A stretch of 64,000 nt of DNA from Agromyces protaetiae (lineage in GTDB: Bacteria; Actinomycetota; Actinomycetes; Actinomycetales; Microbacteriaceae). The stretch covers positions 62,001 through 126,000 of the forward strand of contig NZ_CP133018.1 in NCBI RefSeq assembly GCF_030866785.1, read 5' to 3'. The notes under the pieces were generated by a model. That model ran no database searches and had not been told where the DNA came from. It saw only the letters and a list, made by a program, of their open reading frames with translations. Both the position numbers and the translations under genes were made by a program. Shown one piece after another: positions 17,279 to 22,696 of the stretch; the first letter of the stretch is position 1; each line of letters opens with the position of its first letter.

Positions 17279-17518
17279 TCAGCGCCACCTGGTCGTCATC
17301 AGGAAGCCGATGAAGGCGATGCCGAAGCCGATCAGGATGTTCCAGGACTCGAGCGCCTGGATCGGCAGCGTGCCCTGGCTCACGTAGAACACGATGATCC
17401 ACGCGAGACCGAGGAGCATGAAGCCGAACATCACCGGCTTGTACCAGACCGGGTTCGGGGCCTCCTCGCCGGAGGCCACCTCCTCGCGCGCGGGCTTCGG
17501 GTTCTTCGAACGGGCCAT
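17279..17518 (-). CDS. crgA: Cell division protein CrgA
   Basis: 79 aa, typical for CrgA, a small septal membrane protein of actinobacteria that interacts with the divisome and peptidoglycan synthases. Seen: a charged N-terminus (MARSKNPKPAREE), then PNPVWYKPVMFGFMLLGLAWIIVFYVS and a second segment ILIGFGIAFIGFLMTTRWR, with the conserved short loop between. ATG 17518 is used: TACAAT (17526-17531, minus strand) ends 7 nt before it and no Shine-Dalgarno exists, so the mRNA is probably leaderless. Confidence 0.93.
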   Translation of the reverse strand: MARSKNPKPAREEVASGEEAPNPVWYKPVMFGFMLLGLAWIIVFYVSQGTLPIQALESWNILIGFGIAFIGFLMTTRWR

Positions 17519-17633
17519 GCCGCCGATTGTAGCCGAGTGATCCATCGAACCCCCACTCACCCGAACGGGCGTTCGAACGTGCAGTAGTCTGAATCGACCG
17601 ATCTTCCACCTCGATCGGCAGACGGAGACGCCT

Positions 17634-19565
17634 TTGGACCCGGCCGAACTCGCCATCGATCCCGATGAGCTGCGGCGGCTCGAAGAGTGCGCGAGAGAGC
17701 CCATCCGCACCCCGGGCATGATTCAGGCGCACGGCGCGGTGCTCGGCATCGATTCGGCCACTCAGGTCGTGGTCGTCGCGAGTGAGAACGCCCGCGACTG
17801 GCTCGGCCGGCCGTTCGCCGAGATCGCCGACCCGGCGCTCGAGTACGCGGCGCGCACGGGTGCCGCGATCGATCCCGTCCGGGTGAGCTGGGGCGGCGTG
17901 CCCAGCGATGCGATCGTGCACCGCGTCGACGACCTCACGCTCGTGGAGATCGAGCCGGTGCCCGCCGGCAACGAGTATGCGCGGACCGCCGTCGTCTCCG
18001 CGATCACGACGCTGTTGTCGGTGACCTCCGTCGCGGAGCTTCGCGAACGTGCAGCGGCACTGATCCGGGAGATCACCGGATTCGACCGCGTGATGATCTA
18101 CCACTTCCACGACGACGGCCACGGGGAGGTCGTCGCCGACGACCGCCACCCCGACCTCGAACCGTACCTCGGGCTGCACTTCCCGTCGTCGGACATCCCG
18201 CCCCAGGCCCGTGCGTTGTACATCTCGAAGCTCGGCCGCGCGATCGCGAGCACGACCGAGCCGGCGATCCCGCTGCTCGCCGTCTCCGGCGACCCGCGGA
18301 CGATCGACCTCTCGAACGCCGAGCTGCGGGCGGTCTCGCCGTATCACCTGCAGTACATGCAGAACATGGGCCAGGCGTCGACGTTCTCACTCAGCCTCGT
18401 GGAGAACGGGCGCCTCGTCGGCATGATCACCTGCGCGCACCGCACCGAGCGGCGGTTGCCGGTGCTGCTCCGGCGCTCGCTCGAGGTGCTCGCGGGTCAG
18501 GTGTCCATGCAGCTCGCCTCGATGCGTGAGATCGCGAGGCTGCAGCACATGGTCGAGGTCCGCGAGCGTCGGGCCGCGCTGCTCGCGCCGCTCTACGCGT
18601 CCGACGACATTCAAGCCGCGCTCCTGGGCGGGTCGCAGACGGTGCTCGACCTCGTCCCCGCCGACGGTGTGCTGGTGCGCATCGGCGGCACCTCCCGCGT
18701 CGGTGGCGACGTGCCTGCCGTCGGTGGCCTGCTGAAGGTGCTCGAACGGCTCCACGGCGAGCCGTTCGTGTCCGAGTGCCTTGACACCGACCGGCCCGAG
18801 TTCGCGGAACTCCTCCCCGGCGTCGCCGGGCTCCTCGTCGTGCAGCTCTCAGGAACGGGCGACGCGATCGTCTTCGTGCGTGGCGAGGTGTCGCGTGAGA
18901 TCTCGTGGCTCGGGGACCCGGGCATGACGCACCGCCCGAGCGATCTCTCGCCGCGCACCTCGTTCTCGGCGTGGGAGCGCACTGTGCGGGGGCGCTCCGA
19001 GGCGTGGGGCACCGTGCCCGAGGAGGCGGCAGAGCTCGGGCACGAGCTCGAGATCGCGCTGCAGCGCCGCGCTGAGGCCCAGCTCGCCGAGCTCGCGATG
19101 CGGGACGCCCTCACGGGCCTGCACAACCGGCGCTATCTCGTCGAACGACTCGCCACCCGCGGACCCGTCGGCGAGGAGGGCAAGGCGCTGCTCTTCGTCG
19201 ACCTCGATGAGTTCAAACGCATCAACGACGAGCACGGGCACGACGTCGGCGACATGGTCATCCTCGAGGTCGCCAAGCGATTGACCGCCCATTCGCGGCA
19301 CCAAGACGACGTCGTGCGGCTCGGTGGCGATGAGTTCGTCGTGCTGATCGACGGGGTCGTCGGCGAAGACGTGAACGCGATCGCCCAACGCATGGTCGAG
19401 GCGGTCGCCGCCCCGATCGTCGTCGGCCGCGTCGTGCTGACGGTCACCGCGTCGTGCGGATTCGTCATCGCCGAGCCGGGGTCGCCGCGCGCCGGGCTGC
19501 TGGAGGCCGCCGACGCGGCGATGTATCGCGCCAAGCGCGCCGGACGCAACCGGGTCTCGGCCTAG
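17634..19565 (+). CDS. Bacteriophytochrome-diguanylate cyclase (PAS-GAF-PHY-GGDEF)
   Basis: 643 aa from TTG 17634 (GGAG at 17624-17627). A red/far-red light sensor fused to a c-di-GMP-making enzyme. N-terminal biliverdin-binding Cys is present (C19 in ECAREPIRTPGMIQAHG). The GAF domain has HFPSSDIPPQARALY (Asp187), SPYHLQYMQNMG (H238) and ITCAHR (H269). The PHY tongue shows WLGDPG and PRTSF (440-444). A short linker helix leads to GGDEF (564-568) with the inhibitory I-site RxxD (R555-D558) intact, so active and product-inhibited synthesis is expected. No heme oxygenase, needed to make biliverdin, is in the window. The gene interrupts the usual crgA-to-sortase order. Confidence 0.93.
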   Translation: MDPAELAIDPDELRRLEECAREPIRTPGMIQAHGAVLGIDSATQVVVVASENARDWLGRPFAEIADPALEYAARTGAAIDPVRVSWGGVPSDAIVHRVDDLTLVEIEPVPAGNEYARTAVVSAITTLLSVTSVAELRERAAALIREITGFDRVMIYHFHDDGHGEVVADDRHPDLEPYLGLHFPSSDIPPQARALYISKLGRAIASTTEPAIPLLAVSGDPRTIDLSNAELRAVSPYHLQYMQNMGQASTFSLSLVENGRLVGMITCAHRTERRLPVLLRRSLEVLAGQVSMQLASMREIARLQHMVEVRERRAALLAPLYASDDIQAALLGGSQTVLDLVPADGVLVRIGGTSRVGGDVPAVGGLLKVLERLHGEPFVSECLDTDRPEFAELLPGVAGLLVVQLSGTGDAIVFVRGEVSREISWLGDPGMTHRPSDLSPRTSFSAWERTVRGRSEAWGTVPEEAAELGHELEIALQRRAEAQLAELAMRDALTGLHNRRYLVERLATRGPVGEEGKALLFVDLDEFKRINDEHGHDVGDMVILEVAKRLTAHSRHQDDVVRLGGDEFVVLIDGVVGEDVNAIAQRMVEAVAAPIVVGRVVLTVTASCGFVIAEPGSPRAGLLEAADAAMYRAKRAGRNRVSA

Positions 19566-19576
19566 CGAGGCTCAGG

Positions 19577-19873
19577 TCAGGCCGGGCGCTCAGGCTCGGG
19601 CGTGATGCGCAGGCCCGACGCGGCGTTCGCCGAATCGATGAGCTCTTCGAGCCACATCCGGTTGATGTCGCTCACCGGCCCCTCGAACTCGAAGCGAAGG
19701 GTCGCGGCGGTGTTGATCCAGATCTGCTGCCGCCCGCCCGACGCCTCATCGATCGAGAGCGCGAAGCCCTCGCCTCGGCGGAGCTTGGCGAGCACCACGA
19801 ACTCGACGTGCGCGAGCGTCCGGTCAGGCAGTGCGAACGAGGTCGGCGGCGAGCCGTAGTGCAGGGTACCCAT
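19577..19873 (-). CDS. DUF7882-like small protein, copy A
   Basis: 98 aa. The family signature shared with the two copies at 21178 and 21507 is DRTLAH, KLRRGEGF, IW, FEF and AN..SGL, ending in PEPE. I recall this as a Microbacteriaceae family (DUF7882, sometimes mislabelled ATP-dependent DNA ligase); no ligase motif is visible. No signal peptide or membrane helix. ATG 19873 has the -10-like TAGGAT (19881-19886, minus strand) 7 nt upstream and no Shine-Dalgarno. It is convergent with the phytochrome gene, 11 bp away, and divergent from the next small gene with only 32 bp between starts. Confidence 0.75.
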   Translation of the reverse strand: MGTLHYGSPPTSFALPDRTLAHVEFVVLAKLRRGEGFALSIDEASGGRQQIWINTAATLRFEFEGPVSDINRMWLEELIDSANAASGLRITPEPERPA

Positions 19874-19905
19874 CACGTCGATCCTACGCGGGGTAGCCTG
19901 GTGGA
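19874..19905. promoter_or_regulatory. Overlapping divergent leaderless promoters in 32 bp
   Basis: Minus-strand -10 TAGGAT (19881-19886) sits 7 nt from ATG 19873. Plus-strand -10 TAGCCT (19894-19899) sits 6 nt from GTG 19906. Any -35 elements would have to lie inside the opposite gene's coding start, so the two promoters should compete. Confidence 0.5.
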
Positions 19906-20172
19906 GTGAGCATTGTGCACCGGTTGACCGTAGATGGACGCGATTACTTCCTGCCCGACCCTGTGACCGCGCTCAAAGGGCAGATCCTGGAGGCGATCAA
20001 ACAGGGCGGCGGCTACGTCAACATCCCGCCGTTGCGCGGCGGTCCCGGCATCGACATCCTCTTCTCGCCGGGCATGCCCGTGACGTGGTCGCAGATCGAC
20101 GTCGGCGGCGAGGCCGTCCCCGACGCCGAGGCCAAGGGCCCGGTGCAGGTCGACGACGAGTTCGGGCTCTGA
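19906..20172 (+). CDS. Small hypothetical protein
   Basis: 88 aa from GTG 19906, probably leaderless (TAGCCT 6 nt upstream). Soluble, acidic C-terminus (VQVDDEFGL). Notable segments are LTVDGRDYFLPDPVTALKGQ, QGGGYVNIPPLRGG and FSPGMPVTWSQIDV. I recognise no family. It shares its promoter region with DUF7882-like copy A and lies inside the c-di-GMP cluster; a link to signalling is only a guess. Codon usage looks like its neighbours. Confidence 0.6.
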   Translation: MSIVHRLTVDGRDYFLPDPVTALKGQILEAIKQGGGYVNIPPLRGGPGIDILFSPGMPVTWSQIDVGGEAVPDAEAKGPVQVDDEFGL

Positions 20173-20275
20173 CGCTCTCACGGTTGGCGCGCGGTTAAGG
20201 AACCGAGCACCGCATCGGATGCCTCGTCGGGCGCCCGTCACGGGCGCCTGGATCGGGCATCCCGATGAGCGGAGC

Positions 20276-21058
20276 TCAGGCGGCCTTGGCGAGGATCTGA
20301 TCGAGCTGTTCGGCCGGGAGCGCGGGCGCGAAGTAGAAGCCCTGCGCCCGGTCGCAGCCCCAGCGCAGCGCGCGGGCGAAGTGCTCGTCCGTCTCGACGC
20401 CCTCGGCGACCACGCACGCGTCGTGGTCCCGGGCGATCTCGACGCACTCGGCGACGAGCGCGTCGGCGGAGGCGCGATCGTCGCTCATGAGCGATCGGTC
20501 GATCTTCACCTCGGTGAACGGCAGACGGCGCAGGATCTCCAGCGAGGTGTGGCCGGCGCCGAAGTCGTCGATCGACACACCCACCCCGCCGTCGAGCAGC
20601 GTTCGCAGCGTCTCCAGCTCGGCATCCGACTCCTGGAGCCGGGGCGACTCGATGATCTCGACCGTGACCGCACCTCGGGGCAGCTCGAGGCGGCTGATGG
20701 TCTCCAGCATCGACTCGGCGAACTCGGGGCGGAGCTCGGAGGGCGACACGTTGAGTGAGAGTCCGACGTGCAGGCCGCGCCGGTGCCATTCCGCGGCGCG
20801 ACGGCCCGATTCCTCCAGCATGACCCGGCCGAGGTCGGCGATCAGCCCGTGCTGTTCGGCGATCTCGATGAACCGATCCGGAAGGAGGATGCCGCGCTCC
20901 GGGTGGTTCCACCGGCAGAGCGCCTCGAGGGCGACGACGCGACGGGTCTTCAGGTCGTACAGCGGCTGGAAGTACGCGGTGAGCTCACCCGACGTGAACG
21001 CACGCCGGAGCTCGCCGGCGAGCTCGTCGGCGGGGTTCAGCGGGCTATCCAACATCAC
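20276..21058 (-). CDS. Stand-alone EAL-domain c-di-GMP phosphodiesterase
   Basis: 260 aa, a single EAL domain without sensor or membrane part. The enzyme cleaves c-di-GMP to pGpG. Catalytic and metal residues are all visible: EALCRW, LNVSPSEL, EIIES, DDFGAGHTSL, KIDRSL, VAEGVET and QGFYFAPAL. It should therefore be active, opposing the phytochrome cyclase 0.7 kb away. Start at ATG 21058 or 21055; no clear Shine-Dalgarno. A minus-strand TTGTCA (21087-21092) with a weak GACCCT 17 nt later could be the promoter. It is divergent from DUF7882-like copy B. Confidence 0.9.
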   Translation of the reverse strand: MMLDSPLNPADELAGELRRAFTSGELTAYFQPLYDLKTRRVVALEALCRWNHPERGILLPDRFIEIAEQHGLIADLGRVMLEESGRRAAEWHRRGLHVGLSLNVSPSELRPEFAESMLETISRLELPRGAVTVEIIESPRLQESDAELETLRTLLDGGVGVSIDDFGAGHTSLEILRRLPFTEVKIDRSLMSDDRASADALVAECVEIARDHDACVVAEGVETDEHFARALRWGCDRAQGFYFAPALPAEQLDQILAKAA

Positions 21059-21177: not shown

Positions 21178-21510
21178 ATGGGCACCCTCACGTACGACTC
21201 CAAACTCACCGTCTCGTTCGACGACCGCGTGCTGGCGCACCTGCAGTCGGTCATCTGGTCGAAGCTCCGGCGCGGCGAGTGCTTCTCGTTCACCTGGGCG
21301 GAATCGTCCGGCAGTGCGTTCGGCCGCACCTCGATCTGGCTCGCGCCGCACATCCCGATCGCGTTCGAGTACTTCGGCGGTCGTGCGCCGCGATTGAACC
21401 CCGCATGGGTGCAGGTGCTGACGAAGGCGGCGAACTCGGCCGCGGGCCTCGTGATCGTGCCCGAGCCGAGCGAGTCGGACGCGCGGGCGTCGGGCGCCGG
21501 TTCGCCCTAG
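21178..21510 (+). CDS. DUF7882-like small protein, copy B
   Basis: 110 aa. Shows the family signature DRVLAHLQSVIWSKLRRGE, a W-rich middle (FSFTWAESSG..SIWLAP), IAFEYF, LNPAWVQVLTKAANSAAGL and VPEPSE. It is closest to copy C (both have LNPxW..LTKAANS.AGL) and further from copy A, which suggests an older and a newer duplication. Its TAG stop shares the palindrome CTAG with the stop of copy C. Function unknown; soluble, single domain. Confidence 0.75.
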   Translation: MGTLTYDSKLTVSFDDRVLAHLQSVIWSKLRRGECFSFTWAESSGSAFGRTSIWLAPHIPIAFEYFGGRAPRLNPAWVQVLTKAANSAAGLVIVPEPSESDARASGAGSP

Positions 21511-21830
21511 CCGCGCTCGGTGCGCGCAGGTGCCGGCTCGGGCTCCGGCACCAGCACGAGCCCGGCCGGTGAGTTCGCGGCCTTGGTGAGGGCCCTGATC
21601 CAGTGCGGGTTGAGCGGGATCTCACGCGATTCGAAGAACTCGAAGGTCACGGCGACGTTCGGGCTGAACCAGATCGAGCTCCGGCCGCTGCCGCGCTCGA
21701 CGGGGTTCTCCCACGAGTACGAGAACGACTCGCCACGCCGGAGCTTGGCGAAGATCACGCTCCGCAGATGCGCGAGCGGACGGTCGTCGATCTCGATCGT
21801 GCGGATGAAGTTATACGTCAGAACGCCCAC
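21507..21830 (-). CDS. DUF7882-like small protein, copy C
   Basis: 107 aa from GTG 21830 (VGVLTYNF aligns with MGTLTYDS of copy B). A longer frame to ATG 21881 adds 17 residues without family similarity. Conserved parts: DDRPLAHLRSVIFAKLRRGESF, SIWFSPN, VTFEFFES, LNPHWIRALTKAANSPAGL and a PEPEPAPAR tail. It is convergent with copy B and divergent from the class E sortase gene. Function unknown. Confidence 0.72.
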   Translation of the reverse strand: MGVLTYNFIRTIEIDDRPLAHLRSVIFAKLRRGESFSYSWENPVERGSGRSSIWFSPNVAVTFEFFESREIPLNPHWIRALTKAANSPAGLVLVPEPEPAPARTERG

Positions 21831-21891
21831 CCTCCCAGCATGCCACCTCCACACCCGTCCGATTCCCAGCAGAACGTTCAATCCACGCGGA

Positions 21892-21904
21892 TAGAATCGC
21901 CCGT
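21892..21904 (+). promoter_or_regulatory. -10 element for leaderless sortase E gene
   Basis: TAGAAT (21892-21897) ends 7 nt before ATG 21905. No Shine-Dalgarno is visible. A convincing -35 is lacking. Confidence 0.5.
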
Positions 21905-22696
21905 ATGCCAGAGCCGCTCACCGAGTCGCGTCGCGCCCGCCGCAGGTCCGAGCGACCCCGCCGACGCGTCAGCGTGGTCGGCGTCTTCGGCGAGCTGTTG
22001 CTCACCGCGGGTGCCCTGATCCTGCTCTTCCTCGGCTGGCAGCTCTGGTGGAACGACGCCATCATGGCGGGTCAGCAGTCGAGCGCGGCATCCGATCTCA
22101 GCAATGAGTGGATGGAGTCTGACCGCGCCGAACGCGGCGACGCGCCCCCGCCGGCGACGCCCGACCCGGGCGAGCCCGTCGTCGACACGACGACGTACGG
22201 CAATGCCGAATCGTTCGCGGTCATGTACGTGCCGCGCTTCGGTGAGGGCTCGCAGCGGAACATCGCCGAGGGCACGGGGCTCGACGTGCTGAACAGCTTC
22301 ACGCTCGGCGTCGGGCACTACCCCGGCACGGCGATGCCCGGGTCCGTCGGCAACTTCGCGATCGCCGCGCACCGTTCCGCCTACGGCGGCGGCATGCACG
22401 AGATCGATCAGTTGCAGCTCGGTGACGCCATCTACGTGCAGACCAAAGACGGCTGGTACACGTACCGGTTCCGCGACTTCGAGTACGTCACGCCCGAGAC
22501 CGTCGACGTGCTCGCGCCCGTGCCGCACCACCCCGACCTGCAGCCGACCGACCGCATCATCACACTGACCAGCTGCAACCCGCTCTGGTCGACCGCCGAG
22601 CGCATCATCGCGTACGGCGTGCTGGAGTCCTGGCAGCCGGGCGCAGCCAATCCTCCGGCGGAGATCGCCGAGACCGTCGCAACCTGGGGACAATGA
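21905..22696 (+). CDS. Class E sortase
   Basis: 263 aa. Housekeeping-type transpeptidase that attaches LPXTG-like proteins to the cell wall in high-GC actinobacteria. A basic cytoplasmic tail is followed by one membrane helix (about 23-45, VVGVFGELLLTAGALILLFLGW) and an extracellular sortase barrel with His in AIAAHRSAYG (H156), Cys in TLTSCNPLW (C224) and Arg in STAERIIAYG (R233). The position between crgA and trpG matches other actinobacterial genomes. A 53-aa membrane protein and trpG follow with almost no gaps. Confidence 0.93.
   Translation: MPEPLTESRRARRRSERPRRRVSVVGVFGELLLTAGALILLFLGWQLWWNDAIMAGQQSSAASDLSNEWMESDRAERGDAPPPATPDPGEPVVDTTTYGNAESFAVMYVPRFGEGSQRNIAEGTGLDVLNSFTLGVGHYPGTAMPGSVGNFAIAAHRSAYGGGMHEIDQLQLGDAIYVQTKDGWYTYRFRDFEYVTPETVDVLAPVPHHPDLQPTDRIITLTSCNPLWSTAERIIAYGVLESWQPGAANPPAEIAETVATWGQ

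What the first reader, a model, noticed from the sequence alone, without database searches (positions are those of the whole stretch)
17634..21058. Red-light to c-di-GMP module inserted in the near-origin cell-division block
Seen: a phytochrome with Cys19, DIP motif, both GAF histidines, PRxSF tongue, GGDEF and I-site all intact, and an EAL protein with every catalytic motif, within 3.5 kb, between crgA and the class E sortase. Known: those two core genes are normally near neighbours in actinobacteria. Inference: light may control c-di-GMP, and so envelope or division functions, through genes placed next to the PknA/PknB operon. Phytochrome cyclases are little studied in this family.
Basis: partly seen in the sequence, partly recalled or inferred. 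Interest (0 to 1): 0.75.

Follow-up and report, generated by a model that had tools for sequence, protein, structure and literature searches.

The report
Portable light-to-c-di-GMP gene cassette
A soil actinomycete (Agromyces) carries, slipped between a cell-division gene and a sortase gene, a compact set of six genes that should turn red light into a bacterial signalling molecule; the same set sits at other places in related genomes and includes relatives of proteins proposed to pass on signals from a light-sensing rhodopsin.

Summary
In detail: 17634-19565 encodes an intact phytochrome-activated diguanylate cyclase (PadC), 20276-21058 an EAL protein with all EAL motifs. They belong to a larger unit, PadC - DUF7882 - unk88 (a family without Pfam model) - EAL - DUF7882 - DUF7882, on strictly alternating strands, so not an operon. 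The genome is an Agromyces. Eleven of 60 Agromyces genomes have PadC; all 11 have the six genes in the same order and orientation, at several sites, and only this one has them between crgA and srtE. None of 97 other genomes checked has the unit there: it is an insertion, and trees favour a separate gain over a simple move. Heme oxygenase (biliverdin source) is present. Light-to-c-di-GMP is well supported by homology; two PadCs of this family, one from Agromyces, are already characterised in print. A link to division or envelope through location is not supported. New is the company: DUF7882 was defined in 2025 as the putative CryoRhodopsin transducer family, and a DUF7882-unk88-EAL core recurs in Microbacteriaceae beside a phytochrome cyclase or an RsbQ/PAS-GGDEF sensor. 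This suggests a small-protein adaptor set for c-di-GMP signalling; that role is inferred from association alone.

The parts
17279..17518 (-). crgA, left flank
   Evidence: Pfam CrgA E 1.1e-28; adjacent to srtE in relatives
17526..17531 (-). -10-like element of crgA, kept at the left edge of the insertion
   Evidence: counterpart conserved in the 14 relatives printed; promoter role is inference
17585..17590 (+). TAGTCT, -10-like element upstream of PadC (TACGCT in several relatives); about the left end of sequence conserved among cassettes
   Evidence: alignment of 11 cassettes, read by eye
17634..19565 (+). PadC: phytochrome-activated diguanylate cyclase, PAS-GAF-PHY-GGDEF, 643 aa
   Evidence: IsPadC (5llw) matched over residues 136-641
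19577..19876 (-). DUF7882 protein D1
   Evidence: Pfam PF25355, 102.2 bits against cut-off 27
19906..20172 (+). unk88, conserved 88-aa protein without a Pfam or NCBIfam match at E 0.001
   Evidence: 1221 relatives in the protein database, best 120 seen; alignment
20276..21058 (-). stand-alone EAL phosphodiesterase, 260 aa
21175..21510 (+). DUF7882 protein D2
   Evidence: 121.5 bits against cut-off 27
21507..21830 (-). DUF7882 protein D3 (start moved from the TTG at 21881 to fit the family)
   Evidence: 113.9 bits; alignment; gene call
21831..21848 (.). right end of sequence conserved among the cassettes (CCCAGCATGCCACC)
   Evidence: alignment of 11 cassettes, read by eye
21892..21897 (+). TAGAAT, -10-like element of srtE, kept at the right edge of the insertion
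   Evidence: counterpart in the 14 relatives printed; promoter role is inference
21905..22696 (+). class E sortase srtE, right flank
   Evidence: NCBIfam class_E_sortase, 241 bits against cut-off 160

Best explanation
A self-contained six-gene light-signalling cassette, gained at the crgA-srtE junction in this Agromyces lineage. Red light converts biliverdin-bearing PadC to its active form and raises c-di-GMP; the stand-alone EAL protein breaks c-di-GMP down, so the balance of the two sets the level. The three DUF7882 proteins and unk88 are small partner or adaptor proteins of this pathway; DUF7882 is the family proposed in print, from structure prediction, to be the transducers of CryoRhodopsins. 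The insertion site is incidental. Shown here: intact genes, fixed gene content and order, insertion, several sites, recurrent association, heme oxygenase. Inferred from homology: light activation and both enzyme activities. Inferred from association alone: the adaptor role. The receptor and the output of the pathway are unknown.
For: All PadC and EAL motifs. Characterised actinobacterial relatives are activated by red light (2.2-13-fold for their group; PMC9587094 passage). Heme oxygenase. 11 of 11 PadC-bearing Agromyces genomes carry the same six genes in the same order and orientation, at several sites. Insertion: 0 of 97 other genomes have the unit there. Of 199 family genomes, 28 have strong unk88; all 28 also have an EAL match (84 of 199 overall), 22 within 150 bases of it; PadC and unk88 co-occur in 18 of 20 against 10 of 179. 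DUF7882 is encoded next to every CryoRhodopsin gene examined in PMC12227055 (section read).
Against: No direct test of light, enzyme activity or binding. DUF7882 is common: 125 of 199 genomes, 58 of them without an EAL match in my search, so it cannot serve c-di-GMP alone. The co-occurrence tests are not corrected for ancestry, and in Agromyces and G180 PadC and unk88 are physically linked. No receptor of the PilZ type was found. The genes are not in one operon. For a separate gain: PadC alone does not place this genome outside the other ten (support 62/35).
Confidence: 0.6

Rival explanations
1. One reading: the genes act on division or envelope functions because they are placed beside crgA, srtE and the kinase operon.
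For: They are inserted exactly between crgA and srtE, which could alter the upstream region of both.
Against: In 10 of 11 PadC-bearing Agromyces genomes and in G180 the same unit is elsewhere; both -10-like elements are kept; G211 has a different gene in the same gap.
Confidence: 0.08
2. The unit is a loose neighbourhood of generally useful genes that travel together; DUF7882 and unk88 have nothing to do with c-di-GMP.
For: DUF7882 occurs in 58 genomes without an EAL match and at three other places in this genome where I saw no GGDEF or EAL gene in the 6 kb printed around each. No operon.
Against: unk88 lies within 150 bases of an EAL gene in 22 of 28 genomes and within 5.3 kb in 27 of 28; in 20 family loci anchored on unk88, EAL is found in 19 and DUF7882 in 19; one arrangement is kept in 11 of 11 Agromyces cassettes at several sites.
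Confidence: 0.2
3. PadC works mainly as something other than a light switch, for example as a cyclase governed by biliverdin or heme status.
For: PMC9587094 suggests that one other PadC branch (+2) may not act as a light sensor (passage).
Against: That concerns another branch; here Cys19 and the pocket motifs are all kept, heme oxygenase is present, and characterised relatives from this family respond to red light.
Confidence: 0.12

Closest known systems
Phytochrome-activated diguanylate cyclases (PadC), actinobacterial branch: AsPadC of Agromyces sp. Leaf222 and MtPadC of Microbacterium trichothecenolyticum (PMC9587094)
   Same: Domain order and all defining motifs; same bacterial family and, for AsPadC, same genus
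   Different: The paper treats the proteins alone; its text has no occurrence of 'genomic context', 'neighbour' or 'gene cluster'. Here PadC is one gene of a fixed six-gene unit
PadC-EAL fusion proteins such as R. sphaeroides BphG1 (PMC9587094, passages)
   Same: A light-controlled cyclase and an EAL domain serve one function
   Different: Here the EAL is a separate protein on the opposite strand
CryoRhodopsin putative cytoplasmic transducers, Pfam DUF7882 / PF25355 (PMC12227055)
   Same: D1, D2 and D3 are members of this Pfam family and are encoded beside a photoreceptor
   Different: The photoreceptor is a soluble phytochrome cyclase, not a rhodopsin; three paralogues plus unk88 and EAL
RsbQ / RsbP-PAS sensing module coupled to diguanylate cyclase (PMC3183031)
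   Same: In family relatives an RsbQ-like hydrolase and a PAS-GGDEF protein sit beside the same DUF7882-unk88-EAL core
   Different: In this cassette PadC stands in their place; this genome has a separate RsbQ-PAS-GGDEF-EAL locus without DUF7882 or unk88 in the stretch printed

Membership tests
PadC | Cys in the N-terminal segment, DIP, PRxSF and GGDEF motifs (definition in PMC9587094) | tested here: met
   Cys19, DIP 187, PRTSF 440, GGDEF 564
PadC | Linker length class (-4 in the actinobacterial branch) | tested here: inconclusive
   One search did not print an alignment to IsPadC; the reference residue could not be fixed
PadC | Biliverdin binding and red-light-dependent cyclase activity | not testable with these tools
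   Heme oxygenase present in the genome
EAL phosphodiesterase | Catalytic motifs of the EAL domain (motif list recalled) | tested here: met
   Seven motifs found; Pfam EAL residues 16-245
EAL phosphodiesterase | c-di-GMP hydrolysis | not testable with these tools
   -
DUF7882 (PF25355) | Score over the Pfam cut-off | tested here: met
   D1 102.2, D2 121.5, D3 113.9 bits against 27
CryoRhodopsin transducer | Gene next to or overlapping a CryoRhodopsin gene | tested here: not met
   Neighbours are PadC, unk88, EAL, other DUF7882 genes and srtE
CryoRhodopsin transducer | Pentameric ring (predicted in PMC12227055) | not tested
   Only a monomer model was made
DUF7882, for unk88 | Match to the Pfam model or a profile-profile match | tested here: not met
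   No Pfam match; hhalign probability 1.1%; only the order of predicted elements agrees
Operon | Genes on one strand | tested here: not met
   Strictly alternating strands
Transposon or integrative element | Own recombinase gene or repeats at the ends | tested here: not met
   No recombinase among the six genes; no flanking repeat at both insertion edges among the repeat families shown (20 of 42 direct families, 25 of 69 inverted pairs)

The most novel reading that the evidence does not exclude
DUF7882 proteins with unk88 form a common adaptor or receptor layer of c-di-GMP signalling in Microbacteriaceae, onto which different sensors are plugged: phytochrome cyclases (red light), RsbQ/PAS cyclases (energy stress) and, in other species, CryoRhodopsins (UV). 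CryoRhodopsin transducers would then feed the same c-di-GMP pathway.
Probability: 0.25. Interest if true: 0.8.

Novelty: new variant of a known kind. Interest (0 to 1): 0.58.

Why it matters
The CryoRhodopsin paper leaves its transducer family (DUF7882) without a known pathway (section read; discussion passage). Three of these proteins in a fixed unit with a red-light cyclase and a phosphodiesterase, and the same core beside other cyclases, give that family a concrete pathway to test. The host is convenient: three intact-looking GGDEF genes, one degenerate GGDEF and two EAL genes, and no PilZ match; HD-GYP enzymes and other receptors were not searched. It also points to a likely new small-protein family (unk88) tied to EAL enzymes.

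Tried and rejected

Dropped before counts: for PadC, three genomes with matches of 33-34% (G195, G143, G080) and the GGDEF-only matches; for unk88, 13 of 41 genomes, with only weak matches (E 1e-8 to 1e-3), and a second place in G055. G240 was fetched twice (L209, L248) and is counted once.
Full report
WHAT IS THERE. PadC (17634-19565) has PAS, GAF, PHY and GGDEF domains and every motif that PMC9587094 uses as definition (section 5 read). The EAL protein (20276-21058, opposite strand) has the EAL motifs. Between crgA and srtE lie four more genes: three DUF7882 proteins (D1, D2, D3) and an 88-residue protein, here called unk88, without a Pfam or NCBIfam match. Order and strand: crgA- PadC+ D1- unk88+ EAL- D2+ D3- srtE+; gaps of 115, 11, 32, 103, 119, -4 and 74 bases. 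Neighbours always lie on opposite strands, so this is no operon.

WHOSE GENOME. The window is bases 62001-126000 of a single contig of 4,181,720 bases.

INSERTION. Of 59 other Agromyces genomes none has a cassette gene between crgA and srtE. In 52 crgA and srtE are neighbours (65-229 bases apart in 51; 961 in G211, with another gene between); in 7 no srtE was found and crgA is followed by the next gene at 60-260 bases. Of 40 family loci, two of which (G079, G142) are Agromyces counted above, none has it either: srtE lies next to crgA in 39, and G006 has no srtE match. That makes 97 other genomes. In this genome the inserted DNA falls between the two divergent -10-like elements of crgA and srtE, and both remain; calling them promoters is inference.

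THE CASSETTE IS A UNIT. PadC occurs in 11 of 60 Agromyces genomes and all 11 carry the six genes in the same order and orientation; so does G180 of another genus. The flanks show several sites: four genomes share one site (G237, G249, G199, G242); three share the left flank of a second (G231, G238, G230), of which two also share most of the right; G202, G206 and G239 share only pieces of 0.2-1.2 kb, some on opposite sides; this genome shares none. Conserved sequence around the unit reaches about 50 bases before PadC and about 18 bases beyond the D3 start, read by eye. The cassette is 75.0% identical to that of G199, whose genes around crgA are 86.5% identical to this genome's; for G180 the figures are 69.1% and 58.7%. 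The cassette tree puts this genome outside the other ten (support 93/93, short of the tool's star; PadC alone 62/35, that is, unsupported). A flank-gene tree of 22 genomes groups it with six PadC-less genomes and with G199 and G242 (81/99, also unstarred). Holding this genome, G199 and G242 together is rejected by the cassette (p-AU 3e-42), by PadC alone (2e-5) and by the other five genes (3e-76). A separate gain from an unsampled donor is the simplest reading; old duplication with losses is not excluded, and the flank tree rests on five short genes.

THE WIDER PATTERN. Of 199 family genomes 20 have a full-length PadC of 44% identity or more, 28 a strong unk88, 84 an EAL match and 125 DUF7882. 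unk88 lies within 150 bases of an EAL gene in 22 of 28 genomes and within 5.3 kb in 27 of 28; in G071 it does not. PadC and unk88 co-occur in 18 of 20 genomes against 10 of 179 without PadC; G134 and G187 have PadC without strong unk88. They co-occur also on different contigs (G023). By genus it is 11 of 11 against 7 of 74. None of these tests corrects for ancestry. In 20 family loci anchored on unk88, tblastn finds EAL in 19 and DUF7882 in 19, L165 lacking both. Gene clustering of the same 20 loci finds PAS-GGDEF in 15, an RsbQ-like hydrolase in 13, a Ser/Thr kinase in 6 and PadC in none (it missed unk88 and EAL of L163, seen). Where the clustering allowed a distance, DUF7882 lies within 160 bases of unk88 in 15 of 18 loci and about 3.5 kb away in three. 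One hydrolase matches B. subtilis RsbQ (1wom, E 6e-86), and an RsbQ-PAS module with cyclase output is known (PMC3183031, passages). So a DUF7882-unk88-EAL core is paired with a phytochrome cyclase or with an RsbQ/PAS cyclase. G202 has both at one locus, and this genome has a separate RsbQ-PAS-GGDEF-EAL locus at C1:4057798-4060817 (RsbQ name by likeness to the protein tested).

DUF7882. The only paper found with this name is PMC12227055. Its section on genomic context (read) reports such a gene next to the CryoRhodopsin gene in all genomes examined, predicts pentamers that touch the rhodopsin's C terminus, and founds PF25355. The cassette ties this family to a second kind of photoreceptor and to c-di-GMP enzymes. 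Against an exclusive tie: 58 of 125 DUF7882 genomes had no EAL match. Models of D2 (mean pLDDT 83) and unk88 (mean 70, first 60 residues 77-85) show the same order of elements, two strands, helix, three strands, but profile comparison does not support kinship and no solved fold matches either (for D2).

MECHANISM. Shown: intact genes, constant unit, insertion, heme oxygenase. By homology: red light raises PadC output (2.2-13-fold in the group that includes AsPadC and MtPadC; PMC9587094 passage) and EAL lowers c-di-GMP. By association only: DUF7882 and unk88 pass the signal on. Receptor and output are unknown; PilZ was not found, other receptors were not searched.

NOVELTY. PadC by itself is a new member of a known and studied family. 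A fixed six-gene unit, its several sites and its tie to the CryoRhodopsin transducer family were not seen in the paper searches made in the held open-access library; subscription papers are mostly not in it.

Noticed in passing
L139 (own genome C1:4057798-4060817): A second c-di-GMP locus: RsbQ-like hydrolase, PAS-GGDEF, and a convergent EAL gene, without DUF7882 or unk88 in the stretch printed.
   Followed up: partly
L223 (G211, crgA-srtE gap of 961 bases): A different gene, by eye a membrane protein, sits in the crgA-srtE gap of another Agromyces genome, so this gap tolerates insertions.
   Followed up: no
L196, L205, L219, L226, L227, L234, L243: Seven of 59 other Agromyces genomes show no srtE next to crgA by tblastn; loss of this sortase may recur.
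   Followed up: no
P0124, P0126, P0136, P0139 and others; L252 (own genome C1:532022-537718): DUF7882 proteins are named 'ATP-dependent DNA ligase' in public records. In this genome one copy lies 2.7 kb from what looks, from memory, like a LigD-type ligase; such closeness may have bred the name.
   Followed up: no
L174, L176, L178, L187 and others: A small Ser/Thr protein kinase (Pfam Pkinase E 1.6e-43 for the one tested) recurs at 11 of 36 unk88 or PadC loci.
   Followed up: partly
L253 (own genome C1:2861201-2862355): A membrane protein with a weak GGDEF match (25 bits) and no GGDEF motif seen in the printed sequence.
   Followed up: no
L140 (own genome C1:317400-318350): A third PAS-GGDEF gene, without an RsbQ-like gene directly beside it in the stretch printed.
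   Followed up: no
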